From Bacteroidales bacterium (GTDB lineage: Bacteria > Bacteroidota > Bacteroidia > Bacteroidales > Bacteroidaceae), in NCBI GenBank assembly GCA_024690405.1, contig JAILCU010000072.1, positions 1 to 45,682 on the forward strand: a stretch of 45,682 bases of DNA, given 5' to 3'. Numbering within the stretch: the first letter of the stretch is position 1; each line of letters begins with the position of its first letter. Both the position numbers and the translations under genes were made by a program. Below the pieces are notes generated by a model, which saw nothing but the letters and a program-made list of their open reading frames with translations, was not told where the DNA came from and ran no database searches. Positions 1,368 to 13,131 of this stretch are shown one piece after another.

Positions 1368-2501
1368 ATGAGTCACGAAATATACGTAAAAGCCGTCAGT
1401 TCTTCCCGCGAGAAGAAGGACTTCATCGGTATCGTGGATTCTATCTATCGCCTTATTCCACAATATGTCCCAGACTTGGAATCAGACATTCAGGAATGGC
1501 TGAATGGTAAAGTCGCGGAAGGCCTGGATTTTATCGAGATGCAACCTTTTGTTGCTTATCGCGACGGTGTCGTTGCAGGGCGTGTAATTGGCATCATCAA
1601 TAAGCAAGCCAATCAACGATGGAATATTTCAGCCGTCCGGTTTTCCATGTTAGAATTCATCGATGACGACGACGTTTCCAAGGCTTTGCTTGAAACCATT
1701 GCCACCTGGGGGCGTGAGCGCGGAATGACTACGATGATCGGCCCCATGGGAATCACTGATTTCGACAAGGAAGGTATGCTGGTTGAAGACTTTGAACTTA
1801 CCGGCACGATGAACACCTACTACAACCCGCCCTATTATCCGCGTCACCTTGAGCGCTTAGGGTTTACCAAGGAAACAGATTGGATTCAAATCCGCCTTGA
1901 CATTCCATCCGAACTGCCGGCCCGCTATATGCGTGTGGCGCAATATGTGCGTGAGCAGATGGGGTTACGTGTCATCAAACTCACCCACGCTGACATTCGT
2001 CACGGCCGCGGCCACGAGATTTTCGAGTTGCTCAATGAAGCCTACAGCCCACTATTCGGATTCTCCCCACTGACTCCGACACAAATCGACCGATATGTAA
2101 AGAAATACCTCAGCCTCATCGACCTCAACCTCATTCCCGTTGTTGTCAACGAAAAGAACGAATGCGTCGGAGTGGCAGTAACGATGCCCACGCTCACCCG
2201 TGCTATGCAACGCAGCAAGGGAAGATTGTGGCCTACGGGCTGGTTCCATTTGATGCGCTCACTCAAATGGAAGCACGAGGAGTCGGCAGAACTACTACTT
2301 ATTGCGATCAGACCCGACATGCAGGGAATGGGCGTGAACGCGCTATTCTTCGAGGAGCTTATCACCTTATATAATAAGATGGGGATCCTATGGGCTGAAA
2401 CAGGACCTCAACTTGAAAACAACAGCCGAGAATTGTCGCAATGGACAGCGCTCAAACCGAAATTCGTCAAGCGGAGGAGATGCTATCAGCGCCCCCTATG
2501 A
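1368..2501 (+). CDS. Large GNAT-superfamily-like acyltransferase (about 377 aa)
   Basis: A protein of 377 residues in the style of large GNAT-fold proteins. It contains the block GPMGITDFDKEGM (from residue 125) and TYYNPPYYPRHLERLGF (from about residue 150), which I associate with an uncharacterised GNAT-like family of about 370-390 residues. A C-terminal acetyltransferase-like half ends in IRPDMQGMGVNALFFEEL, resembling the GNAT acyl-CoA-binding loop. It is the first gene of the lipid locus, 57 bases ahead of the ketoacyl synthase. The start at 1368 is preferred because the upstream alternative at 1326 overlaps the promoter. By context it may move an acyl group onto a lipid amine; the Caulobacter ceramide synthase is also a GNAT-fold protein, but orthology is only a hypothesis. 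The substrate is not determinable from sequence. Confidence 0.7.
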   Translation: MSHEIYVKAVSSSREKKDFIGIVDSIYRLIPQYVPDLESDIQEWLNGKVAEGLDFIEMQPFVAYRDGVVAGRVIGIINKQANQRWNISAVRFSMLEFIDDDDVSKALLETIATWGRERGMTTMIGPMGITDFDKEGMLVEDFELTGTMNTYYNPPYYPRHLERLGFTKETDWIQIRLDIPSELPARYMRVAQYVREQMGLRVIKLTHADIRHGRGHEIFELLNEAYSPLFGFSPLTPTQIDRYVKKYLSLIDLNLIPVVVNEKNECVGVAVTMPTLTRAMQRSKGRLWPTGWFHLMRSLKWKHEESAELLLIAIRPDMQGMGVNALFFEELITLYNKMGILWAETGPQLENNSRELSQWTALKPKFVKRRRCYQRPL

Positions 2502-2558
2502 CCTCACTGCAATAAACAAAGACAAACCATATCATTCCTATCATCATTTTTTTCAACC

Positions 2559-3794
2559 ATGCAAAATAGAGTTGTTATTACAGGACTGGGCATTTGGTCG
2601 TGCTTGGGAACGACCCTGGCCGAGGTACGGGAATCGCTGTACCACGGCAAGAGTGGCGTTATCTTCAGCCAGCAGCGTAAGGACGCCGGCTTCCGTTCGG
2701 CCCTTTGCACCGACGTGCCCTGCCCAGACTTGAAACCTTATCTCAACCGTGATTTGCGCAAACTTATTCCCGAGGAGGCCCAATATGCATATATCTCCAC
2801 ACGTCAGGCACTGGCACACGCACACCTTGACCAATCGTATATCGATGCACACGAAGTGGGCGTGATTTTCGGCAATGACAGTGTAGCAGAATCTACGATG
2901 CGTGCCCTCGACAAGTTCCGTCAAGCCGGTTCTACACTGGCCTGTGGCAGCGGTGCTATCTTTCAGTCGATGAACTCGACAGTAACGATGAACCTGGCTA
3001 CGCTATACCATTTTAAAGGCATTAACTTGACGGCTTCAGCCGCCTGCGCCTCAGGTTCCCAAGCCGTTGGTCTGGGTTACTTGCTGATTCGCGACGGCTT
3101 GCAAGATTGTATTGTATGCGGAGGGGCTCAGGAAAATAATATGTATTGTGTGGCTGCCTTTGACGGTCTTATGGCTTTTTCTACCCGCGAAGGAGAACCC
3201 ACGCGGGCGAGCCGTCCCTTCGACCGCGACCGCGACGGTCTCGTGCCTGGTGGCGGTGCCGCTACATTGGTGCTGGAAAGTTACGACCATGCTGTCCGGC
3301 GCGGGGCGCCTATCCTGGCAGAAATCGTCGGCTGGGGATTCTCCGGCAACGGCGATCATATCTCCACACCAAACGTGGATGGTCCGGCACGCTCATTGGA
3401 ACTAAGCCTGCAACACGCCGGCCTCACCCCGAGGGATATCGGCTACATCAATGCCCATGCCACTTCCACCCAAGCCGGCGACGGAAAGGAAGCCCTTGCC
3501 ATAGCGCGTCTTTTCGGCGACTACCGCGTGCCTGTCACCTCCACCAAGGGACAGACCGGACATGAGATGTGGATGGCAGGCGCCTCGGAACTCATCTATT
3601 CGATCTTAATGATGAAAAATGATTTCATCGCCGGCTCACTCAATTTCGAGAACGCCGACGAGGATACGGCCTGCATCCATGTAGTCCCCGAGACTTATGA
3701 CACGCACTTTGACACATTCCTAAGCAATTCGTTCGGATTTGGAGGCACCAACTCCACTCTCATCGTAAAGAACCTCGGGGAGCAGGGATTGTAG
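2559..3794 (+). CDS. Beta-ketoacyl-ACP synthase (KAS I/II type)
   Basis: 411 residues, the full length of a FabB/FabF-type condensing enzyme. The catalytic triad is intact: nucleophile C163 in SAACASGSQ, H300 in NAHATST and H335 in GQTGHEMW, with the conserved K330 of STKG. The C-terminal SFGFGGTNSTLIV is the usual glycine-rich thiolase-fold motif. It should elongate ACP-bound acyl chains using malonyl-ACP. The next gene is an ACP, 146 bases downstream. It differs from the housekeeping copy in context: it lies beside inositol-lipid genes rather than fabD/fabH/acpP. It could be a secondary-metabolite KAS (aryl polyene style), but the partner set here is much smaller than such clusters. Confidence 0.9.
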   Translation: MQNRVVITGLGIWSCLGTTLAEVRESLYHGKSGVIFSQQRKDAGFRSALCTDVPCPDLKPYLNRDLRKLIPEEAQYAYISTRQALAHAHLDQSYIDAHEVGVIFGNDSVAESTMRALDKFRQAGSTLACGSGAIFQSMNSTVTMNLATLYHFKGINLTASAACASGSQAVGLGYLLIRDGLQDCIVCGGAQENNMYCVAAFDGLMAFSTREGEPTRASRPFDRDRDGLVPGGGAATLVLESYDHAVRRGAPILAEIVGWGFSGNGDHISTPNVDGPARSLELSLQHAGLTPRDIGYINAHATSTQAGDGKEALAIARLFGDYRVPVTSTKGQTGHEMWMAGASELIYSILMMKNDFIAGSLNFENADEDTACIHVVPETYDTHFDTFLSNSFGFGGTNSTLIVKNLGEQGL

Positions 3795-3940
3795 GAAGCA
3801 TATAAGAGCAAAGAAGTTATTATAAGATTATGCGATGCGTCCATCAGGTGTAAAAGACCTAAAAGATCTCTCATCCTAAAGGCTTAAAAACCACTATAAA
3901 GACCAAATAAATATACTATTCACTATAAAAACAATTGTTT

Positions 3941-4186
3941 ATGACACGTAATGAAATCATTGAACAAGTAAACCAACTGCTCTCGGAAGAGTACGAAATC
4001 GATCAAAAGGACTTCTCACCAGAAGCCTCGCTGAAAGAGACGCTCCAACTCGACAGCATCAATCTCGTAGACCTTGTGGCCCTGGTACAATATACCTATA
4101 AGATTACAATACCAGCCGAAGACCTGCATCAGATTAAGACCTTCAACGACTTATACGACTACATCGAAAAGCATCAAACTGCATGA
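3941..4186 (+). CDS. Acyl carrier protein
   Basis: 81 residues with a typical four-helix ACP pattern. The phosphopantetheine attachment serine is S39 in LQLDSINLVDL. The motif is DSI rather than the housekeeping DSL, as in specialised carrier proteins. The ATG at 3941 is chosen over an upstream in-frame TTG at 3935. The stop overlaps the next start (ATGA at 4183-4186), implying translational coupling to the dehydratase. It probably carries the chain made by the adjacent ketoacyl synthase; which lipid receives that chain is unknown. Confidence 0.9.
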   Translation: MTRNEIIEQVNQLLSEEYEIDQKDFSPEASLKETLQLDSINLVDLVALVQYTYKITIPAEDLHQIKTFNDLYDYIEKHQTA

Positions 4187-4605
4187 AATATCTCGGCGAG
4201 GATATTCTGAGGCTCATTCCACAACGTAATCCGATGATTATGATTGACGAGTTTGAGCCCTTGGACGGAGAATGCGGGAGGACAGCGCTGACTGTGCGGT
4301 CGGACAATCTGTTCATCACTCCTTTCCACGAATTGTCGGAGACGGGAATGATTGAACATATTGCACAATCGTGTTCTGCTCTCGCCGGTTATCAGTCGCT
4401 TCAGCGTGAAACCATTCACCCCCCTATAGGACTTATTGCCGAAGTGAAGCACTTCAGTTGCGCACGCAGGCCCCGTCCGAGCGAGAAAATGGTGACCACG
4501 GTCACCTTCCACTTGCATGTCGGAGCAATGGTGATGGCCCACGGTACGACAACGGTCAATCACGAAACAATCGCCGAAGCCCAATTGAAAATCTTTGTGC
4601 AATGA
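4183..4605 (+). CDS. Hot-dog fold 3-hydroxyacyl-ACP dehydratase-like protein
   Basis: 140 residues, the length of FabZ/ApeP-like single hot-dog proteins. The N-terminal LIPQRNPMIMIDEFEPLDG matches the family opening (LLPHRxPxxxIDR). E58 in MIEHIAQ matches the catalytic acidic residue on the central helix. The usual histidine 14 residues earlier is not there: position 44 is Phe, and the nearest His is H49. It may therefore be an atypical dehydratase or thioester-binding protein, or use H49. It overlaps the genes on both sides by 4 bases, so it is made in step with the ACP and the flavoprotein. Confidence 0.75.
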   Translation: MKYLGEDILRLIPQRNPMIMIDEFEPLDGECGRTALTVRSDNLFITPFHELSETGMIEHIAQSCSALAGYQSLQRETIHPPIGLIAEVKHFSCARRPRPSEKMVTTVTFHLHVGAMVMAHGTTTVNHETIAEAQLKIFVQ

Positions 4606-6035
4606 TTTACGACGTCGTCATCATAGGTAGCGGTTTTGGTGGTCTGGCATGTGCCCACGAACTCTCCCGGTCAGGCAGAAGCGTACTTCTGCTCGAGCGT
4701 CAGGGAATGCCCGGAGGGTGCCTGCAAAGTTTCCGCCGAGGCAACTACACTTTTGATACGGGGTTCCATTACATTGGCGGTCTGGCCGAAGGACAACCCC
4801 TGCACGACATCTTTGCACGACTAGGTTTGTTGCAATTGCCTTGGAAGCGTCTCGATCCGGCAGGTTCTGAACGCGTAAGCATCGGCAACGAAACGTTTGC
4901 CCTTGCTGAAGGTTTCGAGGCCTATACCGAATCGTTGGCACGCCGTTTTCCGGCAGAGCACACAAATTTGCAGCGTTTCACTTCCATGCTGGCCAATATA
5001 CCATCATGGCAGGAAGGAGGCGAAGTCAACGCTTATACTTACCTGCGAAACTTATTTAGCGACCCGCTGCTGACGGATATCGTTGCCGGACCGGCGTTGA
5101 AGATGGAACTGCGGCGCGAATCACTGCCGCTATACACGTTAGCGCACACCTTGGCAAGCAATATATTAAGCAGTTGGCGACTACAAGGGCCTGGCAACCT
5201 TCTTGTGGATACCCTTGTCGAGGGCATCAGACGTCAAGGAGGTCAACTGGTTTGTCATGCCGAAGTGGAGGAACTGATTGAGCAGGACGGCCGTATCGTT
5301 ATGGCACGATGTGCCGACGGCAGATGTTTTGAAGGACGTCTGTTCGTGAGCGACGTTCATCCGCAGATTACTTTTGATTGGGTGAAGACGTCAGCCCTGC
5401 TCAGACCCCTCTTCCGCCGTAGGATTCGTGCTCTCGAGAACACAGGAGGCATCTTCACCGCCTCGTTGGTGCTCAGAAGCGGGGCCTTATCCTATTTCAA
5501 CCATAATAAATATATCTATCGACACCCCGACATTTGGACGCCTCCTTCACCTGATATCATTGCGCAAGGCACAGTGGATCGTGTGATGGTGAGTTGTCGT
5601 GTACCTGAACTCACCGATAACAGCACGTCCGGTTATCCGCTGCAATTAGACTTGCTCACGCCACTACCTTGGCAGGTATGCAAGGCATGGGAGTCCACAC
5701 GCAGCGGTCATCGCGGACCAGAGTATGAACTTATGAAACAGCGACTGGCCAATGCTTGCATCGAATTGGCAGAACGCGCCATACCGGGCCTTGCGGACAT
5801 GGTTGAGAAGCGCGTCACGCACACGCCCCTCACCTATCGCGACTTCACAGGCACTCCCCAGGGTTCGGCCTATGGTGTTCGCAAGGATAGCCGCCAAATG
5901 ATGCTCACCATGCTCTCACCCAAGACACCCATACCTAACCTATTTCTCACAGGGCAGAGTCTGGCCGTGCATGGACTGGAAGGAGTGGCGATGACAGCAA
6001 TAGAAACTACCAACCTTATTTATAACATAAAATGA
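4602..6035 (+). CDS. FAD-dependent oxidoreductase, phytoene desaturase / retinol saturase-like
   Basis: 477 residues. The N-terminal dinucleotide-binding motif is GSGFGG (residues 9-14), followed by the acidic residue of beta-2 and LERQGMPGGCLQSF, typical of the CrtI/carotenoid isomerase/retinol 13,14-reductase group. The C-terminus (FLTGQSLAVHGLEGVAMTAIET) is the second FAD-contacting motif. Family members desaturate, saturate or isomerise conjugated double bonds in lipids. No carotenoid synthase (CrtB) is nearby, so a carotenoid role is unlikely. Next to a ketoacyl synthase and a dehydratase it could act on an enoyl or polyenyl chain (inference). The ATG at 4602 overlaps the upstream stop and its own stop overlaps ino1; a longer frame to 4458 would run through the dehydratase gene and is rejected. 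Confidence 0.8.
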   Translation: MIYDVVIIGSGFGGLACAHELSRSGRSVLLLERQGMPGGCLQSFRRGNYTFDTGFHYIGGLAEGQPLHDIFARLGLLQLPWKRLDPAGSERVSIGNETFALAEGFEAYTESLARRFPAEHTNLQRFTSMLANIPSWQEGGEVNAYTYLRNLFSDPLLTDIVAGPALKMELRRESLPLYTLAHTLASNILSSWRLQGPGNLLVDTLVEGIRRQGGQLVCHAEVEELIEQDGRIVMARCADGRCFEGRLFVSDVHPQITFDWVKTSALLRPLFRRRIRALENTGGIFTASLVLRSGALSYFNHNKYIYRHPDIWTPPSPDIIAQGTVDRVMVSCRVPELTDNSTSGYPLQLDLLTPLPWQVCKAWESTRSGHRGPEYELMKQRLANACIELAERAIPGLADMVEKRVTHTPLTYRDFTGTPQGSAYGVRKDSRQMMLTMLSPKTPIPNLFLTGQSLAVHGLEGVAMTAIETTNLIYNIK

Positions 6036-7345
6036 CTAAAACAACAAATTCTGTACGTCCTGCCGAAGGTCGGATAGGCGTAATGATTGTAGGCAACGGT
6101 GCTGTTGCCACTACTTTTATGACAGGCGTGCTCATGGCACGCAAGGGTCTTGCGAAACCTATCGGTTCCATGACACAGTATGACAAAATCCGTGTAGGAA
6201 GCGGGACTGATGCACGCTACCTGCATTATGGTGAAATTGTGCCACTGGCATCGCTCAACGACATCGTCTTCGGCACCTGGGACGTTTATCCCGCCAATGC
6301 CTTCGAGGCAGCCGTCAATGCCGAAGTGTTGCGCGCCAAGGACATTCTACCCGTCGAGGAAGAACTACGCGCCATCGTACCCATGCCCGCTGCTTTTGAC
6401 AAACGCTTTGCCAACCGACTGGATGGTGACAACGTTAAGAACTGCGCCACCCGGTGGGATATGGTAGAAGCACTTCGCGAGGACATCCGCCGTTTCAAAG
6501 CGGCCAACGGCTGCAGCCGCATTGTCGTGCTTTGGGCTGCTTCTACAGAAATCTACGTACCTGTGAACATGAAAGTCCACGACACGCTGGCCCATCTCGA
6601 ACAAGCCATGCGCGACAACGACACCGACAACATTGCCCCCTCAATGTGCTATGCCTACGCCGCTTTGGCCGAAGGAGCACCCTTTATCATGGGCGCGCCC
6701 AACACCACCGTTGACATTCCTGCCATGTGGGAAATGGCCGAGCGTCAGCAGCTGCCCATCGCCGGCAAAGACTTCAAGACTGGTCAGACGTTGGTGAAGA
6801 GCGGCTTTGCCCCGATTATCAGCACCCGCTGCTTAGGGTTGAACGGGTGGTTTTCCACCAACATCCTGGGCAACCGCGATGGCCTTGTCCTCGACGAGCC
6901 TGCCAATTTCCACACGAAGGAAGTCTCGAAACTCTCCACGCTGGAATCCATCTTATGCGCAGACAAGCAACCCGACCTTTACAGCGACTATTACCACAAG
7001 GTGCGTATCAACTATTATCCGCCGCGCGGCGACGCGAAGGAAGCGTGGGACAACATCGACATCTTCGGTTGGATGGGCTATCCCATGCAGGTGAAAATCA
7101 ACTTCCTCTGCCGCGACTCCATCCTGGCCGCGCCTGTATGCCTCGACCTGGTGCTGCTCTCCGACCTGGCCGCACGCGCCGGTCATTCAGGCATCCAACG
7201 TTTCATGTCCTTCTTCCTGAAGTCCCCCATGCACGACTATACGCAGGACGAGACGCCCATCAATCATCTCTATCAGCAATACACCTTGCTTAAGAATGCC
7301 ATTCGTGAAATGGGAGGTTACGATGCTGACGAACCCCTCGACTGA
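6032..7345 (+). CDS. ino1: myo-inositol-1-phosphate (1D-myo-inositol-3-phosphate) synthase
   Basis: 437 residues. It converts glucose 6-phosphate to inositol phosphate with bound NAD. The N-terminal Rossmann segment is GVMIVGNGAVATTFMTGV (from residue 16). The catalytic block IAGKDFKTGQT holds K246 and K249, and LGNRDG and the family-typical LNGWFSTNILGN follow. Length and motifs match the Bacteroides and mycobacterial enzymes. It overlaps the flavoprotein gene by ATGA. Together with the four genes downstream it matches the inositol-lipid cluster known from Bacteroides thetaiotaomicron (BT_1522-BT_1526, from memory). Confidence 0.95.
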   Translation: MTKTTNSVRPAEGRIGVMIVGNGAVATTFMTGVLMARKGLAKPIGSMTQYDKIRVGSGTDARYLHYGEIVPLASLNDIVFGTWDVYPANAFEAAVNAEVLRAKDILPVEEELRAIVPMPAAFDKRFANRLDGDNVKNCATRWDMVEALREDIRRFKAANGCSRIVVLWAASTEIYVPVNMKVHDTLAHLEQAMRDNDTDNIAPSMCYAYAALAEGAPFIMGAPNTTVDIPAMWEMAERQQLPIAGKDFKTGQTLVKSGFAPIISTRCLGLNGWFSTNILGNRDGLVLDEPANFHTKEVSKLSTLESILCADKQPDLYSDYYHKVRINYYPPRGDAKEAWDNIDIFGWMGYPMQVKINFLCRDSILAAPVCLDLVLLSDLAARAGHSGIQRFMSFFLKSPMHDYTQDETPINHLYQQYTLLKNAIREMGGYDADEPLD

Positions 7346-7386
7346 TGTAATAGTATTTTCATTCCGCTCAACATTCTTCAAAAACG

Positions 7387-7866
7387 ATGAACAGAAACAA
7401 AACCCGTTTCTACCAAATCATCGCCACCGGGTTTGGCACTGGCTTTTCGCCAGTGGCCCCCGGGACGGCTGGGGCACTGCTGGCATGGTTGGTATGGATT
7501 GGCTACGCATTCTTTTTGTCGCCAATCTGGTGTCTGGCAGTGACGGCTGTACTGGTTGTGGCGTTCACGATAGTGGGCGTACCTGCCAGTACAGCCTGTG
7601 AGCGGTTATGGGGCCCCGACCCCTCGCGTGTCGTCGTTGATGAGATGGTGGGCACATGGATCGCCCTGTTGGCGGTACGCTATGACAGCTGTTGGCTCTT
7701 GTGGAGCCTGGCTGCTCTTATCGCCTTTCGCGTTTTCGACATTTTCAAGCCCTTCGGTATCCGGCGAATGGAATCGCTGCCGGAAGGTTGGGGAATCATG
7801 GCAGACGACATCTTGGCCGGCGTTTATAGCGCATGCCTTCTGTTGCTGCTGCAATGTCTGTTGTAG
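7387..7866 (+). CDS. PgpA-family phosphatase, probable phosphatidylinositol-phosphate phosphatase
   Basis: 159 residues, membrane embedded. All PgpA hallmarks are visible: GTGFSPVAPGTAG near the N-terminus, DPSRVVVDEMVGT (D85-E86), FRVFDIFKP and GIMADDILAG. PgpA normally removes the phosphate of phosphatidylglycerophosphate, but between inositol phosphate synthase and a CDP-alcohol transferase the expected substrate is phosphatidylinositol phosphate, as shown for the Bacteroides homologue. It starts 41 bases after ino1 and its end overlaps the GtrA-like gene. The reassignment from PG to PI metabolism rests on context. Confidence 0.85.
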   Translation: MNRNKTRFYQIIATGFGTGFSPVAPGTAGALLAWLVWIGYAFFLSPIWCLAVTAVLVVAFTIVGVPASTACERLWGPDPSRVVVDEMVGTWIALLAVRYDSCWLLWSLAALIAFRVFDIFKPFGIRRMESLPEGWGIMADDILAGVYSACLLLLLQCLL

Positions 7867-8294
7867 AGATGCGCGAGTGGCGGCTTTTCATCAAGGCTCA
7901 GGCAGCCTCCGTCATGGCCACAGCCCTGGACTTCGGGCTGACGGCCCTGTTGGCATACGTAGGTTGCAACTATGTCCTGGCGACCGCTTGCGGAGCCCTG
8001 CTTGGCGCGTTGTTCAACTGCGTCTACAACTACCTTCTCGTTTTCCGTTGGCAGAAACGTCCCCGCAAGATCATCGCCCTGCGTTACGTGATGACCTGGT
8101 GCTGCAGTCTGCTCCTGAATACCGGGGCCACCTTTGTGCTGACGGAATGTCTGACCGGCGTGAGTCTGTTCCTCGGAGCCAAGGTCATCGCAGCCATCCT
8201 CGTGGCCCTCTGCTGGAACTATCCCATGCAAAGGTTTTTCGTTTTCGCAGAATTCTGCCGCGACGACGTGCCCCCCTCACGTCCCAAGAACTAA
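7854..8294 (+). CDS. GtrA-family small membrane protein
   Basis: About 146 residues with four hydrophobic segments and the GtrA-like ending NYPMQRFFVF (compare NFxxxRxxVF). GtrA proteins are linked to moving lipid-linked sugars across the inner membrane. Here it may help present or flip an inositol lipid or its precursor (inference). The ATG at 7854 overlaps the phosphatase gene by 13 bases; an ATG at 7869, two bases after that gene's stop, is equally possible. The start at 7833 is less likely because of its longer overlap. Confidence 0.8.
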   Translation: MSVVEMREWRLFIKAQAASVMATALDFGLTALLAYVGCNYVLATACGALLGALFNCVYNYLLVFRWQKRPRKIIALRYVMTWCCSLLLNTGATFVLTECLTGVSLFLGAKVIAAILVALCWNYPMQRFFVFAEFCRDDVPPSRPKN

Positions 8295-8309
8295 AAAGCA
8301 AATGAATTT

Positions 8310-8960
8310 ATGAAACCAAGAGATCAACTGGATGTCTTTCTGCATCGCGTCATCACCCCTCTGGCCGACCTCTTCATCAAGCTTGGCATTACCCCCAACA
8401 TGCTCACTGTTGCGGGTGCCGTGATTAGTCTTGTTGCCGCCGCCATGATCGCCGTTGAAGGCTGGGAAGGCTATCAGACAGGCCTGGCCGGCACGAGCGT
8501 CCTGGCCTGGGCTTCGCTGGTGATGCTCCTCGGCAGCCTCTTCGATATGTTCGACGGGCACGTGGCCCGTTGCGGCCACATGCACAGCCAGTTCGGCGCA
8601 TTGCTGGACTCCGTCACCGACCGCCTGTGTGAGATCGCGACCCTCCTGTCCATCTCCTTCTACTTCTTCGGTGCAGACGAGCTGGAATGGGTGCTGGTCA
8701 CCTTCCTGGCCCTGCTGGGATCGGTGATGGTGAGTTACGTGAGGGCCCGTGCCGAAGGACTGGGCGTAGAGTGCAAGACCGGTCTCATGCAACGCCCCGA
8801 GCGCGTGGTCATCACCTGCCTGGGCTGTCTGCTTTCCGGACTCTTCGCTTGCAGCAGCATTCTGGGATGGAGCCTGGCCGTCATTGCCCTTTTTGCCAAC
8901 GCCACGGCCCTGAAGCGCCTCGTCCACTGCCGGCGCGAGCTCGCCAAGAGAGAATCATAG
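8310..8960 (+). CDS. CDP-alcohol phosphatidyltransferase, probable phosphatidylinositol-phosphate synthase
   Basis: 216 residues with several membrane spans. The full catalytic signature DxxDGxxAR-x8-GxxxDxxxD is present as D79, D82, G83, A86, R87, G96, D100 and D104. These aspartates bind metal and CDP-diacylglycerol. With ino1 and a PgpA-like phosphatase beside it, the acceptor is most likely inositol 3-phosphate, giving PI-phosphate, rather than glycerol phosphate. It lies 15 bases after the GtrA-like gene and 24 before the PAP2 gene. Acceptor choice is inferred from the cluster. Confidence 0.88.
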   Translation: MKPRDQLDVFLHRVITPLADLFIKLGITPNMLTVAGAVISLVAAAMIAVEGWEGYQTGLAGTSVLAWASLVMLLGSLFDMFDGHVARCGHMHSQFGALLDSVTDRLCEIATLLSISFYFFGADELEWVLVTFLALLGSVMVSYVRARAEGLGVECKTGLMQRPERVVITCLGCLLSGLFACSSILGWSLAVIALFANATALKRLVHCRRELAKRES

Positions 8961-8984
8961 ACCCCGAAACATCAGAAACAAGAT

Positions 8985-9782
8985 ATGCATCGCATCACCT
9001 CTTATGCGGGACGGTTAATACTGGCCCTGGTCCCCTTTGCCCTGTTCGGCATCATCTACGGTCTCCTGGGGCTCTATCCCAATTATCTGGTCAACGAGAT
9101 TGACATTCACGACCTCTACACCCACGAGCTGGCCTGGTTTGGCATGGCGGACAGCGGTACGCGTGTCATCCCAGGAGCCTATTTCATGCACCACCACTGG
9201 CCCGTGGCCGACCTGTTTGCCGGCATCCTCTACCTGTGCTGGGTTCCCGTTCCCATGGCTTTTGCCATCTGGCTCTTTGTCCGCCGCCGCTATGAGTGGT
9301 GCGCCCGTATGAGCTGGGCCTTCCTTACCGTGAATCTCATAGGCTTTGCCATCTATTATATTCACCCTGCGGCCCCACCCTGGTACGTGCTCCAGCACGG
9401 TTTCGAACCGATCCTGCACACGCCCGGTTCTGCGGCCGGTCTGGCGCGCTTCGACGAACTTACCGGCGGCAACTTTTTCCATAGTTTCTACGACCGCAAC
9501 TGCAATGTTTTCGCAGCGCTGCCATCACTTCATGCCGCCTATCCGCTGGTGGCCCTGATCTATAGCCTTTGCAGCCGCAGCCCCCGTTGGCTCAGCGCGG
9601 TGCTGGCCTTCGTCAGCGTCGGCATCTGGTTCACGGCAGTCTATAGTGCCCACCACTACGTCATTGACGTGCTGGCCGGCATCCTCACCACCTTCGCCGG
9701 CATCGCCCTGTTTGAACTCATTACCCGAAAGACCCGTTGGGGACACAACACTTTCACTCATTACACGCATTGGATTTCATGA
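8985..9782 (+). CDS. PAP2/AUR1-like enzyme, probable inositol phosphorylceramide synthase
   Basis: 265 residues, about six membrane segments. It carries YYIHPAAPPWY, like the PCAPPWY block of fungal AUR1, then ALPSLHAAYP with H183 and SAHHYVIDVLAG with H224 and D228, the PAP2 catalytic triad. AUR1-type enzymes transfer phosphoinositol from PI to ceramide. The Bacteroides homologue in the same cluster is reported to have this role. Its stop overlaps the start of the DUF5686 gene (ATGA). A simple lipid phosphatase role is the alternative. Confidence 0.85.
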   Translation: MHRITSYAGRLILALVPFALFGIIYGLLGLYPNYLVNEIDIHDLYTHELAWFGMADSGTRVIPGAYFMHHHWPVADLFAGILYLCWVPVPMAFAIWLFVRRRYEWCARMSWAFLTVNLIGFAIYYIHPAAPPWYVLQHGFEPILHTPGSAAGLARFDELTGGNFFHSFYDRNCNVFAALPSLHAAYPLVALIYSLCSRSPRWLSAVLAFVSVGIWFTAVYSAHHYVIDVLAGILTTFAGIALFELITRKTRWGHNTFTHYTHWIS

Positions 9783-12466
9783 TACGCAAAGCGCTATTGT
9801 CCATCACCCTCATGTTCGCACTCCTCTGTCCGTCCGGGGCACAGAAACTCACCGGCGTAGTGACAGATGATGCCACTGGCGAGAGCATCCCCTTTGCCAA
9901 TGTCTTCTACAAGGCTATAGGCAAAGGAGTAACGACGAACAACCGCGGCCGTTTCTCCATAGACCGGTACAACGGACGGGAACTCACCATATCCATCATG
10001 GGCTATCAGCCACAACTCATCAAAATCACTGCCAAGACGAAATCGCCGCTCAGCATCCGGCTGAAAGAAAGCACGGCAGTGATGACAGAGTTTGTGGTCA
10101 GTGCTCCCAAGAAACGCTACAGCCGCAAGAATAATCCTGCCGTAGAACTGATGAAGCACGTCGTGGCAGCCCGGGAGCAGACGAAGCTGGAGAACCACGA
10201 CTACTACCAATACACCAAATACCAGAAGATCTCGCTCGCCCTGAACGACTACCGTGCGGGCCAAACGACGGGCAACAGCCTCCATCACGACAGCCTCAGT
10301 TCCGACAGCATCACTCAAGGCCTACCGACCAATGCCCTTGACACGATAATCACATCCCCGGATAGTACTGCTCTTTCCCAAAACAGTGGTTGGGCGGTGG
10401 AGGTTCCGACAGATTCTTCCCACGTCAAGCGCCGTTTTGACTGGGGTGAGCACACCGAGATCAGTCCCTACAACGGTAAACGAATCATGCCGCTGATGTA
10501 CAACGAAGTCGTCACGCAGCATGTCTTTCGCAAGCAGCCACACGCAGAGAAGGACATTGTCCATGGCGAACAGGCATCGGGCCTCAACCAACTGCTCACG
10601 ACAGGCGAAATGGCTAACACCGTGCTCAAGGAAGTATTCCAGGACATCAACATCTACGACGACTACGTTCGTCTGCTTCAGTATCCTTTCGTGAGTCCCA
10701 TCGGCAATCATGCCGTGAATTTCTACCGGTTTTTCATTCAAGACACCGTTGAGGTGGCCGGACAACGATGCTATCATCTTGAGTTTGCGCCCAACAATGT
10801 TCAGGACTTCGGGTTCAGCGGCGAATTATATATCCTGGCCGACAGCTCGCTGCACGTGCGCAAGTGCCGACTGTCGGTCCCCCGTAAGAGCGACGTCAAT
10901 TTTGTCGACAACCTGCAGATCGAGCAGGAGTTTGTGCAGCTGGAGAACGGCGAGTGGGCCCTTGCCACGGACCTCATGTGGGCTGAACTGCGGATTGCTC
11001 GCGTCAAGGCGCTGGCCGTAAGAGACACGCGCATCAGCAATTATGCCTTTGACGCCCTGCCCAACGCCCTCTTCCGTGGAAGGACGGAAAAACGGATGGT
11101 GGCCAACGCACGCAATCGTGACGATGAATTCTGGAACGAATACCGCGCCGTAGCGCTCACCGCCAAGGAGGCCGGTGTAGGCGGGTTCATGGAAAAGCTG
11201 AAGAACCACAAAGGCTTCAAAGTGCCCCTTTTCATCATCAAAGCCGTGGGCGAGAACTATATCGAGACAGGCCCTAAGGACAAACCCAGCAAGTTTGATT
11301 TCGGCCCCGTCATGAGTTCTGCTTCCTATAATTTTGTCGACGGATTCAGGCTGCGTTTGAGCGGTCGTACCATGGCAGCACTCCATCCCCGCCTTTTCTG
11401 GCACGGATATGCCGCCTACGGTTTCAAATCTCGCCAGCCCTATTATGGCAGCACCATCACTTGGTCGTTCAATAAGAAGAAACTCTCTCCCTTTGAGTTC
11501 CCTATGCGCAATATCATCTTCGAAAGCGCTTACGATGTCATGTCACCATCTGACAAGTTCCTTATCAACGACAAGGACAACCTGCTCATGGGCATACGCA
11601 CGCAGACGGTAAAACAAATGTACTTTTACAACCGCCAACGCCTCAGTTTTGTCTACGAGACGGAGAACGGACTGAACCTAAAGACATCCCTGAAGACCGA
11701 GAGCAACGAAGTCACCGGTGACCTGCATTTCAAGCATCTCCACGACGGAGGAGAGACACGCCGCCTCAGGACCACCGAATGGAGCGTCGGTCTACATTAT
11801 GCGCCGGGACAAACTTTTGTCAATACGAAGCAGAACAGATACCCCATCAATTTCGACAATCCCGAGTACTATCTCCGTCACACCATGGGTTTCGATGGCT
11901 TTCTCGGCGGACAATATCGGATGAACATGACTGAAGCCGGCATCTATAAGCGCCAATGGCTCGGCAGTTGGGGACATATCGACCTCCACATTGATGTCGC
12001 CGCACAGTGGAACAAACTCCCGTTCCCGCTGCTCATGACGCCCCCCATCTCACTCACCTATATCCAACAGGAAGGCACCTTCAGTATGCTGCGCAATATG
12101 GAGTTCTTCATGGACCGTAAGTTGTGCTGGATGGTGGCCTGGGACCTCAACGGCAAGATTTTCAACCGCATCCCGCTGCTCAAGAAACTCAAGTGGCGCG
12201 AATATGTCGCCTTCAAGGGGGTATGGGGACAGTTGACCGACAAGAACAACCCCACGCTGCGCGAGAATGCAGGTGACCAGGAGCTCTTTCAGCTGCCTCA
12301 GGGCTCTTATCCCATCGACCCCAAGCGCCCCTATATGGAAGTCAGTGCAGGCGTCCACAACATCTTCAATTTATTCTCTGTGGAATGGGTGCATCGCATC
12401 AACTACCACGAACACCCCGACACGAAGACCGACGGTGTCCGCTTCGGCTTCCAGTTCAGTTTCTGA
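9779..12466 (+). CDS. DUF5686 outer-membrane protein with carboxypeptidase-regulatory-like domain
   Basis: 895 residues. A signal peptide covers residues 1-21 (ending GAQ). Next is a CarboxypepD_reg-like beta-sandwich (about 22-105, GVVTDDATGESIPFANVFYK...), then the long DUF5686 region, probably an outer-membrane beta-barrel ending in VRFGFQFSF with a terminal Phe. The exact function of DUF5686 is not known. The start at 9779 overlaps the stop of the IPC-synthase-like gene, so the two are translationally coupled. That suggests a role linked to the lipid product, for example placement in the outer membrane (inference). Confidence 0.85.
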   Translation: MIRKALLSITLMFALLCPSGAQKLTGVVTDDATGESIPFANVFYKAIGKGVTTNNRGRFSIDRYNGRELTISIMGYQPQLIKITAKTKSPLSIRLKESTAVMTEFVVSAPKKRYSRKNNPAVELMKHVVAAREQTKLENHDYYQYTKYQKISLALNDYRAGQTTGNSLHHDSLSSDSITQGLPTNALDTIITSPDSTALSQNSGWAVEVPTDSSHVKRRFDWGEHTEISPYNGKRIMPLMYNEVVTQHVFRKQPHAEKDIVHGEQASGLNQLLTTGEMANTVLKEVFQDINIYDDYVRLLQYPFVSPIGNHAVNFYRFFIQDTVEVAGQRCYHLEFAPNNVQDFGFSGELYILADSSLHVRKCRLSVPRKSDVNFVDNLQIEQEFVQLENGEWALATDLMWAELRIARVKALAVRDTRISNYAFDALPNALFRGRTEKRMVANARNRDDEFWNEYRAVALTAKEAGVGGFMEKLKNHKGFKVPLFIIKAVGENYIETGPKDKPSKFDFGPVMSSASYNFVDGFRLRLSGRTMAALHPRLFWHGYAAYGFKSRQPYYGSTITWSFNKKKLSPFEFPMRNIIFESAYDVMSPSDKFLINDKDNLLMGIRTQTVKQMYFYNRQRLSFVYETENGLNLKTSLKTESNEVTGDLHFKHLHDGGETRRLRTTEWSVGLHYAPGQTFVNTKQNRYPINFDNPEYYLRHTMGFDGFLGGQYRMNMTEAGIYKRQWLGSWGHIDLHIDVAAQWNKLPFPLLMTPPISLTYIQQEGTFSMLRNMEFFMDRKLCWMVAWDLNGKIFNRIPLLKKLKWREYVAFKGVWGQLTDKNNPTLRENAGDQELFQLPQGSYPIDPKRPYMEVSAGVHNIFNLFSVEWVHRINYHEHPDTKTDGVRFGFQFSF

Positions 12467-12585
12467 GGAATTCTCCGCACTCACGAGATGATTTACACGG
12501 AGTCACTTCATTTTTTATGCATCCCACCCCCCCCCGTTTGTTTAAAAATATTTACTCATTTATCACTCTCCTCATCCTTCAAGGA

Positions 12586-13131
12586 ATGAAAAAAAGTCCT
12601 GCGAAAATCCTCAATGGGAGTCCCCGATCCATATCGTTCCTCTATCGGGCTCTGCTACTATGTATTGCCTTCATTCCATCCCTTACAATCTCAGCCGCCG
12701 AGCCTGAAGGTCGGTTGTTCCGCTTCGAGCGGAGCACCAACCGCAATTACATCTGCTATGACGTCCGGCAAGTCAACGGGAGGCTCGACACAAAAGAGCC
12801 CATCCATGTCTATTGGATTCGTGCTGAGGAGGATGGCAGCCAAAAGGAACTCTCTTTTGTCCAGCGCAAACTTGCCTTCGGGTACAAGGTTGTAAAAAAA
12901 GGCGGCAACGAAGCGGTTGTTCATCTCACCGCCTACAGCAAGTTCAACATCCGCATCTGTCAGCGCCACGGCAAATGGATAGCCCTTGCCAGCATCAACG
13001 GTAAAGAAGCCCAACTCCACAAACTCTTCGCTCAGATGCGCTCTCCCACATCGTTGCACGTTGAATATGTGGATATTTTCGGGACGGGCCTCGACACACA
13101 CAAGCCTGTGAGCGAGCGCATCCGCAACTGA
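12586..13131 (+). CDS. DUF4833-type secreted or periplasmic protein
   Basis: 181 residues. A long N-region and hydrophobic segment (FLYRALLLCIAFIPSLTISAA) suggest a signal peptide or anchor. The mature part (LFRFERSTNRNYICYDVRQVNG...PIHVYWIRAEEDG) resembles the DUF4833 family, whose function is unknown. AAGGA directly abuts the ATG at 12586. An alternative in-frame ATG at 12517 would place a run of nine C inside the coding region, where slippage would switch the frame. It follows DUF5686 by 119 bases and ends the lipid locus before a terminator. Confidence 0.7.
   Translation: MKKSPAKILNGSPRSISFLYRALLLCIAFIPSLTISAAEPEGRLFRFERSTNRNYICYDVRQVNGRLDTKEPIHVYWIRAEEDGSQKELSFVQRKLAFGYKVVKKGGNEAVVHLTAYSKFNIRICQRHGKWIALASINGKEAQLHKLFAQMRSPTSLHVEYVDIFGTGLDTHKPVSERIRN

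What the first reader, a model, noticed from the sequence alone, without database searches (positions are those of the whole stretch)
1368..9782. A dedicated ACP-based acyl module coupled to the inositol-sphingolipid genes
Ketoacyl synthase, ACP, hot-dog dehydratase and a CrtI-like flavoprotein precede ino1 in one direction, and ACP, dehydratase, flavoprotein and ino1 overlap by ATGA at every joint. Downstream are the PI-phosphate synthase, phosphatase and IPC-synthase-like genes. Overlaps and intact catalytic residues are seen directly; the inositol pathway is known from Bacteroides. A special acyl chain made for an inositol lipid, for example its ceramide N-acyl group, is my inference.
Basis: partly seen in the sequence, partly recalled or inferred. 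Interest (0 to 1): 0.8.

Follow-up and report, generated by a model that had tools for sequence, protein, structure and literature searches.

The report
Lipid operon holding inositol-ceramide genes
In an uncultured relative of rumen Prevotella, the genes for an inositol-ceramide membrane lipid sit inside a separate, widespread operon that seems to build and attach a special fatty chain; a few other species have fused the two sets in other ways, although most keep them apart.

Summary
The genes and ATGA joints are real. The "acyl module" is a free-standing lipid operon of Prevotella-type bacteria, resembling aryl-polyene operons but with one KS and a YghO-family N-acyltransferase gene. Its KAS was found in 58 of 139 genomes of the window's genus and 95 of 348 of a Prevotella genus; ino1 in 27 and 216; both in 8 and 51, not more than chance (11.3 and 59.0). 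In the window a B. theta-type inositol cassette (ino1-pgpA-gtrA-PIPS-AUR1) lies between the CrtI-like gene and a module-type DUF5686 gene. Two other genomes are fused differently: G296 (AUR1-ino1 between DH2 and CrtI-like) and G218 (ino1-LPGS-CDPPT after LolA; KAS frameshifted); a damaged contig and a relic point to another. Trees favour separate fusions but do not exclude one old fusion with losses. The GNAT is 25% identical to YghO and the genome has serine palmitoyltransferase, but a paralogue is equally close. A special N-acyl chain on an inositol ceramide is plausible, not shown. General coupling is refuted; recurrent minority coupling is supported.

The parts
1368..2501 (+). Tandem-GNAT N-acyltransferase-like protein (377 aa), YghO superfamily; module class
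   Evidence: Pfam PF00583 at the C-terminus; 25% identity over 383 columns to E. coli YghO, E=3e-32; AlphaFold model (mean pLDDT 81.5) matches tandem-GNAT structures, the best of them acetyltransferases or of unknown substrate
2559..3794 (+). Beta-ketoacyl-ACP synthase, closest in the PDB to FabB, Cys163-His300-His335
   Evidence: PF00109/PF02801; best PDB match FabB 1dd8 E=2e-81; residues conserved in relatives
3941..4186 (+). Acyl carrier protein, Ser39 (ORF opens at 3935)
   Evidence: PF00550; conserved D38-S39
4183..4605 (+). Hot-dog 'dehydratase' (DH), FabZ-related, Glu58 kept, FabZ histidine not conserved
   Evidence: TIGR01750 match E=4e-7, no Pfam match; conservation
4602..6035 (+). 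CrtI/CrtD-like FAD oxidoreductase (FLAV)
   Evidence: PF13450/PF01593; TIGR02733 E=5e-34, far below its cut-off
6032..7345 (+). ino1, myo-inositol-1-phosphate synthase (BT_1526 type); start of the inserted inositol cassette
   Evidence: PF07994 330 bits; tree places it in a clade of Prevotella-sample rows, away from the genome's other copy
7387..7866 (+). PgpA-like phosphatidylinositol-phosphate phosphatase (BT_1525 type)
   Evidence: PF04608
7869..8294 (+). GtrA-like membrane protein (BT_1524 type); start uncertain, ORF opens at 7833
   Evidence: PF04138; ORF 7833-8294
8310..8960 (+). PI-phosphate synthase (BT_1523 type), DX2DGX2AR...GX3DX3D motif present
   Evidence: NF052561 212 bits, below its cut-off of 350; motif read in the translation
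8985..9782 (+). AUR1-like phosphoinositol dihydroceramide synthase (BT_1522 type); end of cassette
   Evidence: NF052609 E=5e-102, 341 bits, below its cut-off of 480; PF14378
9779..12466 (+). DUF5686 protein (CarboxypepD_reg domain plus predicted Omp85-like barrel), of the kind that follows the acyl module
   Evidence: PF18939/PF13715; tree of 89 rows groups it with module-linked copies L087 and L059, with L072 and with L181 (98), apart from ino1-linked ones; low-confidence model matches TamA/BamA/SAM50
12583..13131 (+). DUF4833 protein, follows DUF5686 in several module loci (start inferred within ORF 12385-13131)
   Evidence: PF16117; same Pfam family after DUF5686 in L036; L181's copy recognised by eye from its translation

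Best explanation
The locus is a hybrid operon. Its frame is a reduced form of a widespread Prevotella-type acyl-lipid operon (GNAT-KAS-ACP-DH-FLAV ... DUF5686-DUF4833). A B. theta-type inositol-phosphoceramide cassette (ino1-pgpA-gtrA-PIPS-AUR1), by its ino1 apparently from a Prevotella-like donor, sits between FLAV and DUF5686 and is joined at both ends by ATGA overlaps. Shown: gene order, joints, and related operons without a cassette at that point; supported by trees: that the other fusions are mostly separate events. Inferred mechanism: KAS elongates a chain on the dedicated ACP, with reductase and dehydratase supplied partly by the cell's own FAS; the CrtI-like flavoprotein changes its unsaturation; the GNAT moves the chain from ACP to an amine, most likely a sphingoid base, giving a dihydroceramide with a special N-acyl chain; PIPS and PgpA make phosphatidylinositol, and AUR1 passes phosphoinositol to that ceramide; DUF5686, a predicted Omp85-like barrel, helps place the product in the outer membrane. 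In other species the same module carries MMPL and LolA exporters and sometimes its own CDP-alcohol phosphotransferase.
For: Module found free-standing in many genomes with a largely constant order. Window KAS is sister to that of L059, whose operon GNAT-KAS-ACP-FLAV-DUF5686 has no cassette (SH-aLRT 93). Window DUF5686 groups with module-linked copies. Window ino1 lies in a six-row clade with Prevotella-sample genomes (99/98) while the C25 copy groups with the same genus. Two other genomes interleave the same functions: L181 GNAT-KAS-ACP-DH-DH2-AUR1-ino1-FLAV-KR-DUF5686-DUF4833, gaps -47 to 85 nt, and L243 GNAT-KAS-ACP-DH-FLAV-KR-LolA-ino1-LPGS-CDPPT with HAD and NTP-transferase genes convergent. 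With the window left out, 2 of 58 genomes carrying both have ino1 within 7 kb on the same strand, 0.14-0.17 expected (P 0.008-0.013 by a rough count devised afterwards). GNAT is homologous to YghO and SPT is present.
Against: No positive co-occurrence across genomes, and a slight deficit in the Prevotella sample. G296, whose operon holds AUR1 and ino1, has no detectable BT-type PIPS, so its pathway is incomplete or the MAG is. In L243 the KAS is frameshifted. Window and L181 share small clades for ino1 and for DUF5686, so one old fusion with losses and exchange of the front genes is not excluded. A GNAT paralogue is equally close to YghO, and SPT is found in 52 of 58 module-KAS-positive and 71 of 81 negative genomes of the genus, so ceramide is not singled out as the acceptor. 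The window lacks the KR, DH2, MMPL and LolA of the fuller operon, and its DH lacks a conserved FabZ histidine. Module-type CDPPT adjoins the module with and without ino1 in the genome (10 of 36 and 3 of 15).
Confidence: 0.45

Rival explanations
1. Neighbours without shared chemistry. The acyl module makes a separate aryl-polyene-like or N-acyl lipid exported by MMPL/LolA/DUF5686-type proteins. The inositol cassettes landed in it by recombination, helped by the DUF5686 genes that both kinds of cluster carry, and simply use its promoter.
For: The fuller module resembles APE clusters in its KR, two hot-dog proteins, thioesterase, LolA-like chaperone and RND/MMPL transporter (APE gene table in PMC8253772). 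No positive co-occurrence with ino1. DUF5686 lies next to both ino1 and the module in many loci (18 and 65 of 89 rows), a plausible recombination site, and a BT_1527 homologue lies near both inositol clusters (PMC9246714).
Against: Different insertion points and two different inositol systems are hard to explain by one recombination site; in L181 AUR1-ino1 lies in the middle of the operon, between DH2 and FLAV, away from DUF5686. The module starts with a YghO-family acyltransferase, not in the APE gene table.
Confidence: 0.38
2. One reading: the module is a dedicated acyl supply for inositol sphingolipids wherever it occurs.
For: Fused operons; a module-linked branch of CDP-alcohol phosphotransferases includes members beside ino1.
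Against: ino1 not found in 44 of 95 Prevotella-sample and 50 of 58 same-genus KAS-positive genomes; where both were found they nearly always lie apart. MAG incompleteness inflates these absences somewhat.
Confidence: 0.1
3. The joint in the window is a chimeric assembly.
For: The genome is a MAG in 150 contigs, and codon-position GC differs (GC3 0.52-0.61 in GNAT-FLAV, 0.66-0.77 from ino1 to DUF5686).
Against: Both ends of the cassette join by in-frame ATGA overlaps inside the conserved FLAV and DUF5686 flanks; other genomes hold comparable fusions.
Confidence: 0.04

Closest known systems
Bacteroides thetaiotaomicron inositol-lipid cluster BT_1522-BT_1526 (Heaver et al. 2022, PMC9246714; sections 6 and 10 and passages read)
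   Same: ino1, PgpA-like PIP phosphatase, GtrA, PIPS and PI-dihydroceramide synthase; a CarboxypepD_reg gene nearby as BT_1527
   Different: Here the five genes lie between the flavoprotein and DUF5686 of an acyl operon; the terms 'acyl carrier' and 'ketoacyl' do not occur in that paper's main text
Alternative inositol-lipid cluster of B. vulgatus/Prevotella (NTP transferase, CDP-alcohol phosphatidyltransferase, HAD; same paper)
   Same: Cluster fused to the acyl operon in L243 and, with a damaged module, in L131; relic L169
   Different: The module-linked CDPPTs and those of these loci are separated from the ordinary ino1-linked ones by one branch (SH-aLRT 95)
Aryl polyene (APE) gene clusters (PMC8253772, passages read)
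   Same: ACP, hot-dog dehydratases, KR, thioesterase, LolA-like and RND-type transporter in the fuller operon of relatives
   Different: One KS instead of three in the window; no acyl-ACP synthetase or glycosyl/acyltransferase among the genes scanned by Pfam in the window and L033, not searched for in every locus; a YghO-family N-acyltransferase, a CrtI-like flavoprotein and DUF5686 instead. Window copy lacks KR, LolA and MMPL
Ceramide N-acyltransferase CerS/bCerS (CC_1154) and YghO (PMC9386255, PMC11324152, PMC11087976, passages read; that bCerS and CC_1154 are the same protein is recalled)
   Same: Full-length homology of the GNAT to YghO, tandem-GNAT fold
   Different: 25% identity; a paralogue in the same genome is equally close; linked to KAS/ACP rather than to spt
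Pseudomonas fluorescens sgaAB polyketide-derived sphingolipids (PMC12134224, passages read)
   Same: Precedent for a dedicated chain-building system feeding a sphingolipid
   Different: Iterative type I PKS plus an alpha-oxoamine synthase making the sphingoid base, not an N-acyl chain

Membership tests
BT_1522-1526 type inositol-lipid cluster | MIPS, PIP phosphatase, PIPS and PI-DHC synthase homologues together | tested here: met
   NF052561 (212 of 350 bits) and NF052609 (341 of 480 bits) are the best named families but below their curated cut-offs
BT_1522-1526 type inositol-lipid cluster | PIPS catalytic motif DX2DGX2AR...GX3DX3D | tested here: met
   DMFDGHVAR...GALLDSVTD in the translation of 8310-8960; motif as given in PMC9246714
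BT_1522-1526 type inositol-lipid cluster | production of PI-dihydroceramide | not testable with these tools
   -
Aryl polyene cluster | three ketosynthase genes, one a chain-length factor and one for initiation | tested here: not met
   one KS in the window and one in most relatives' operons when searched with the window KAS (L221 shows a second, 33% match further on); gene list of PMC8253772
Aryl polyene cluster | acyl-ACP synthetase for the aryl starter in the cluster | tested here: inconclusive
   none among the genes scanned by Pfam in the window and L033; not searched for in every locus
Aryl polyene cluster | ACP, dehydratase, KR, LolA-like and RND transporter | tested here: inconclusive
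   present in relatives' fuller operons; KR, LolA and RND absent from the window copy
CerS/YghO ceramide N-acyltransferase | homology over the whole length | tested here: met
   25% over 383 columns to YghO, E=3e-32; the Caulobacter protein itself was not compared
CerS/YghO ceramide N-acyltransferase | being the family member that serves sphingolipid synthesis (linkage or co-occurrence with spt) | tested here: inconclusive
   spt in 123 of 139 genomes, 52 of 58 with and 71 of 81 without the module KAS; a GNAT paralogue is equally close to YghO
CerS/YghO ceramide N-acyltransferase | N-acylation of a sphingoid base | not testable with these tools
   -
FabZ-type dehydratase (DH gene) | catalytic His and Glu pair | tested here: not met
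   Glu58 conserved; no conserved histidine in the loop before it in 94 distinct sequences; which FabZ residues are catalytic is recalled

The most novel reading that the evidence does not exclude
Prevotella-type bacteria own a modular lipid factory: one acyl operon (KAS-ACP-DH-FLAV with a ceramide-synthase-like GNAT and MMPL/LolA/Omp85-like export) whose polar head is set by an exchangeable cassette. The cassette is a dedicated CDP-alcohol phosphotransferase in some species, CDPPT with ino1 in others, and a PI-ceramide synthase with ino1 in the window and in G296. The product would be a new class of inositol or polyol phospho-lipids with an operon-made N-acyl chain.
Probability: 0.3. Interest if true: 0.75.

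Novelty: new variant of a known kind. Interest (0 to 1): 0.52.

Why it matters
What the acyl-lipid operons of rumen Prevotella make is, as far as my searches show, open, and so is the source of any special N-acyl chain in Bacteroidota sphingolipids. The fused operons tie a dedicated chain-building system to a defined head-group pathway, so the unknown product can be sought as a known lipid class. They also suggest roles for two little-characterised genes: a YghO-family acyltransferase, and DUF5686 as an Omp85-like partner of lipid clusters. The report also shows that the coupling is a minority arrangement, which guards against reading it as general biology of the group.

Tried and rejected
Tried without deciding anything: sequence search of the PDB for a ceramide-synthase structure (weak matches only); literature on DUF5686 (no paper in that library); whether module-linked CDPPT depends on ino1 (10 of 36 loci from ino1-positive and 3 of 15 from ino1-negative genomes with at least 9.5 kb downstream, one of the 10, L207, on the other strand; 14 and 9 shorter loci left out; 12 further short stretches from ino1-negative genomes showed none, but only 5 of them contained module genes); whether SPT tracks the module (present in most genomes, uninformative); adjacency of ino1 and module in G141 (same contig, about 16 kb apart, opposite strands: treated as chance).

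Rejected: a true APE cluster (one KS); general coupling of module and inositol genes (counts); an early idea that all high-scoring GNAT hits mark the module, because GNATs without KAS beside them were found (L056, L057 and others), so KAS at E below 1e-150 was used for counting instead; L131 as a full case, because its KAS and ino1 carry internal deletions, which I take for a collapsed co-assembly.

Rows dropped: the KAS tree left out paralogue rows of L240, L244-L249, L046, L047 and L052, and L243 fell below the length filter because of its frameshift. Trees hold only rows from loci fetched here. Some KAS-positive loci lack a GNAT in the stretch fetched (L238, L240, L242). The FLAV tree did not show the window's own row (probably lost to a duplicate) and was used for L181 and L243 only. 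ino1 counts use E up to 0.001 and include partial genes. One search prints a capped list of places, but the KAS surroundings of all 51 double-positive genomes were fetched and searched for ino1; several of those stretches are cut short by contig ends. For the window's genus, distance was judged by contig numbers.
Full report
What is there. The run 1368-13131 is one same-strand series: GNAT, KAS, ACP, DH, CrtI-like flavoprotein (FLAV), ino1, PgpA, GtrA, PIPS, AUR1-like PI-dihydroceramide synthase, DUF5686, DUF4833. ACP/DH, DH/FLAV, FLAV/ino1 and AUR1/DUF5686 each overlap by four bases, ATGA. KAS and ACP catalytic residues are conserved among relatives. The DH keeps Glu58 (and His59) but has no conserved histidine in the loop where FabZ carries its own. 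Ino1 to AUR1 is the gene set that Heaver et al. characterised as BT_1526 to BT_1522; they found no lipid change by TLC on deleting the GtrA gene, and they note the CarboxypepD_reg gene BT_1527 in the vicinity (PMC9246714 sections 6 and 10). The window's genome also holds a second ino1 (G000:C25), a serine palmitoyltransferase (C122; best PDB matches are SPTs at E=2e-150; the other candidate, C101, is a 2-amino-3-ketobutyrate ligase) and a second GNAT at C11 near signal-peptidase and DapB genes.

What the acyl module is. In relatives the same genes form a free-standing operon. Its fuller form is AraC regulator, GNAT, KAS, ACP, DH, second hot-dog protein (DH2), MMPL transporter, FLAV, short-chain reductase (KR), LolA-like protein, 4HBT thioesterase, DUF5686, sometimes with a CDP-alcohol phosphotransferase (CDPPT) and an LPG-synthase-TM protein (LPGS) after it; single loci lack one or more of these. 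Reduced forms GNAT-KAS-ACP-FLAV-DUF5686 occur in the window's own genus. The layout recalls aryl-polyene clusters, which have LolA-like, RND, KR, dehydratase and thioesterase genes (PMC8253772 passages), but with one KS and a YghO-family GNAT. A survey reports 2,800 'aryl polyene' clusters among 14,814 in 8,160 rumen genomes (PMC8241843 passages); whether antiSMASH calls this module so was not tested.

Is it tied to inositol genes? Mostly not. In the window's genus (139 genomes, the window's own included) ino1 is in 27, module KAS in 58, both in 8 with 11.3 expected. In 348 genomes of the genus of Prevotella sp. SIG146, ino1 is in 216, KAS in 95, both in 51 with 59.0 expected. One-sided Fisher P for an excess is 0.95 and 0.98; for a deficit 0.11 and 0.03. 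These are mostly MAGs, so absences are partly gaps, and the test ignores kinship. In the window's genus the 8 double carriers show the genes side by side in the window, about 16 kb apart on opposite strands in G141, and on different contigs in the other 6. For 20 of the 25 ino1-positive genomes among 49 named genomes from the GNAT scan, the ino1 surroundings were fetched: none of the 20 stretches holds an intact module, though L169 holds its KR-LolA tail.

But fusions recur. Among the 51 double-positive genomes of the sample, all of whose KAS surroundings were fetched, two hold ino1 in the operon. L181 (G296) reads GNAT-KAS-ACP-DH-DH2-AUR1-ino1-FLAV-KR-DUF5686-DUF4833 on one strand with gaps of -47 to 85 nt; its AUR1 is best matched by the PI-dihydroceramide synthase family (340 bits, cut-off 480), and an ino1 fragment precedes the GNAT. 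L243 (G218) reads GNAT-KAS-ACP-DH-FLAV-KR-LolA-ino1-LPGS-CDPPT, with HAD and NTP-transferase genes convergent, i.e. the alternative inositol cluster, and DUF5686 divergent on the other side; its KAS is frameshifted. L131 (Prevotella sp. RGIG2926) shows module genes followed by KR-LolA-LPGS-ino1-DUF5686-CDPPT, but KAS and ino1 have internal deletions. L169 (G205) is 94-99% identical to the later parts of L131 and keeps only the last 63 residues of KR before LolA-LPGS-ino1-DUF5686-CDPPT-NTP transferase. A rough placement model gives 0.14 expected same-strand cases within 7 kb in 58 genomes with the window left out, against 2 seen (P 0.008); 0.17 and P 0.013 for a smaller genome. That test was devised after seeing the cases and ignores any general clustering of lipid genes.

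Independence. In the ino1 tree (47 rows) the linked label needs three changes, forced by well-supported branches. Window and L181 ino1 fall in one six-row clade (99/98), but in different halves of it with unlinked rows; the C25 copy groups with the same genus. The GNAT tree forces at least two changes for the three fused loci; the AUR1 tree (7 rows) puts window and L181 on different sides, at 92, below the star. Against independence: window and L181 also share a five-row DUF5686 clade (98), though the window sits in a four-row part of it (99) with L087, L059 and L072, none of which shows ino1 in the stretch fetched. As few as one old fusion with several losses and exchange of the front genes is therefore not excluded for these two; L243 belongs to the other inositol system. 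G073, the nearest relative by KAS, has ino1, a BT-type PIPS and the module on three different contigs.

Which operon hosts which. The window's DUF5686 is nearest to module-linked copies (65% L087, 61% L059, 59% L181); ino1-linked copies reach 35-50%, but most module-linked ones of Prevotella lie no higher, so the tree, not the percentage, carries this. With the FLAV side conserved too, the inositol genes appear to sit inside the module rather than the reverse.

Head-group genes of the module. One branch (SH-aLRT 95) of the CDPPT tree separates 17 rows, namely 13 next to the module plus L131, L169, L190 and L243, from 20 others, 19 of them beside ino1. With at least 9.5 kb of downstream sequence, CDPPT adjoins the module in 10 of 36 loci of ino1-positive and 3 of 15 of ino1-negative genomes. 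The module thus sometimes has a phospho-head-group enzyme of its own, not strictly dependent on ino1.

Likely function. The GNAT is 25% identical over its length to YghO; YghO and Caulobacter CC_1154, needed for dihydroceramide, are listed as the same gene type (PMC9386255 and PMC11324152 passages). Its AlphaFold model has a tandem-GNAT fold; the best PDB matches are acetyltransferases, with an N-myristoyl-histidine complex and N-myristoyltransferases further down, so acyl length is not told. This makes it a likely N-acyltransferase and a possible ceramide synthase. Against singling it out: the C11 paralogue is as close to YghO (26%); 136 of 139 genomes have a GNAT matching this alignment, the lower-scoring class being widespread (listing capped); and SPT is in 123 of 139, 52 of 58 with and 71 of 81 without the module KAS, and in 18 of 18 near-complete ones. 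I therefore read the module GNAT as an accessory N-acyltransferase fed by a dedicated ACP. DUF5686 gives a low-confidence model (pLDDT 69.7, pTM 0.45) whose best listed matches are Omp85-type barrels, TamA first, which would suit a lipid-export role; this is inference.

Limits. Genomes are mostly MAGs; contig ends hide neighbours; the fused cases are few; G296 has no detectable BT-type PIPS; no lipid has been measured. No title describing the fused operon appeared in the listings, which search open-licence PMC papers only and show the top rows.

Verdict.

Noticed in passing
G000:C25:3393-4715 (L001/L145): A second ino1, 79-80% identical to the window's, with a divergent DUF5686 gene beside it; it groups with ino1 of the same genus while the window copy groups with Prevotella-sample rows.
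   Followed up: yes
G000:C146:28000-45682 (L052): Another aryl-polyene-like cluster in the same genome: KAS-like protein, FabA-like protein, GT2, MMPL-acyltransferase fusion (1205 aa), two tandem CrtI-like flavoproteins, B12-type radical SAM, AMP-ligase.
   Followed up: partly
G000:C11:20678-21832 (L136): A GNAT paralogue near signal-peptidase and dapB genes, as close to YghO as the module GNAT, of a class that appears widespread in the genus; candidate housekeeping ceramide synthase.
   Followed up: partly
L056, L057, L066, L078: GNATs about 60% identical to the module GNAT but without KAS/ACP neighbours in the loci fetched.
   Followed up: no
window 1368-12466: GC3 steps up from 0.52-0.61 (GNAT to FLAV) to 0.66-0.77 (ino1 to DUF5686), which may reflect different histories of the two parts.
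   Followed up: partly
L181:12656-12976: An ino1 5' fragment (residues 6-58) just upstream of the GNAT in G296, perhaps a scar of duplication or rearrangement.
   Followed up: no
L087 (2512-11128): A locus with KAS-ACP-DH-FLAV first, then DUF5686, then the GNAT: a shuffled order of the module.
   Followed up: no
G296 (L181): PI-ceramide synthase and ino1 present, but no BT-type PIPS found in the genome.
   Followed up: partly
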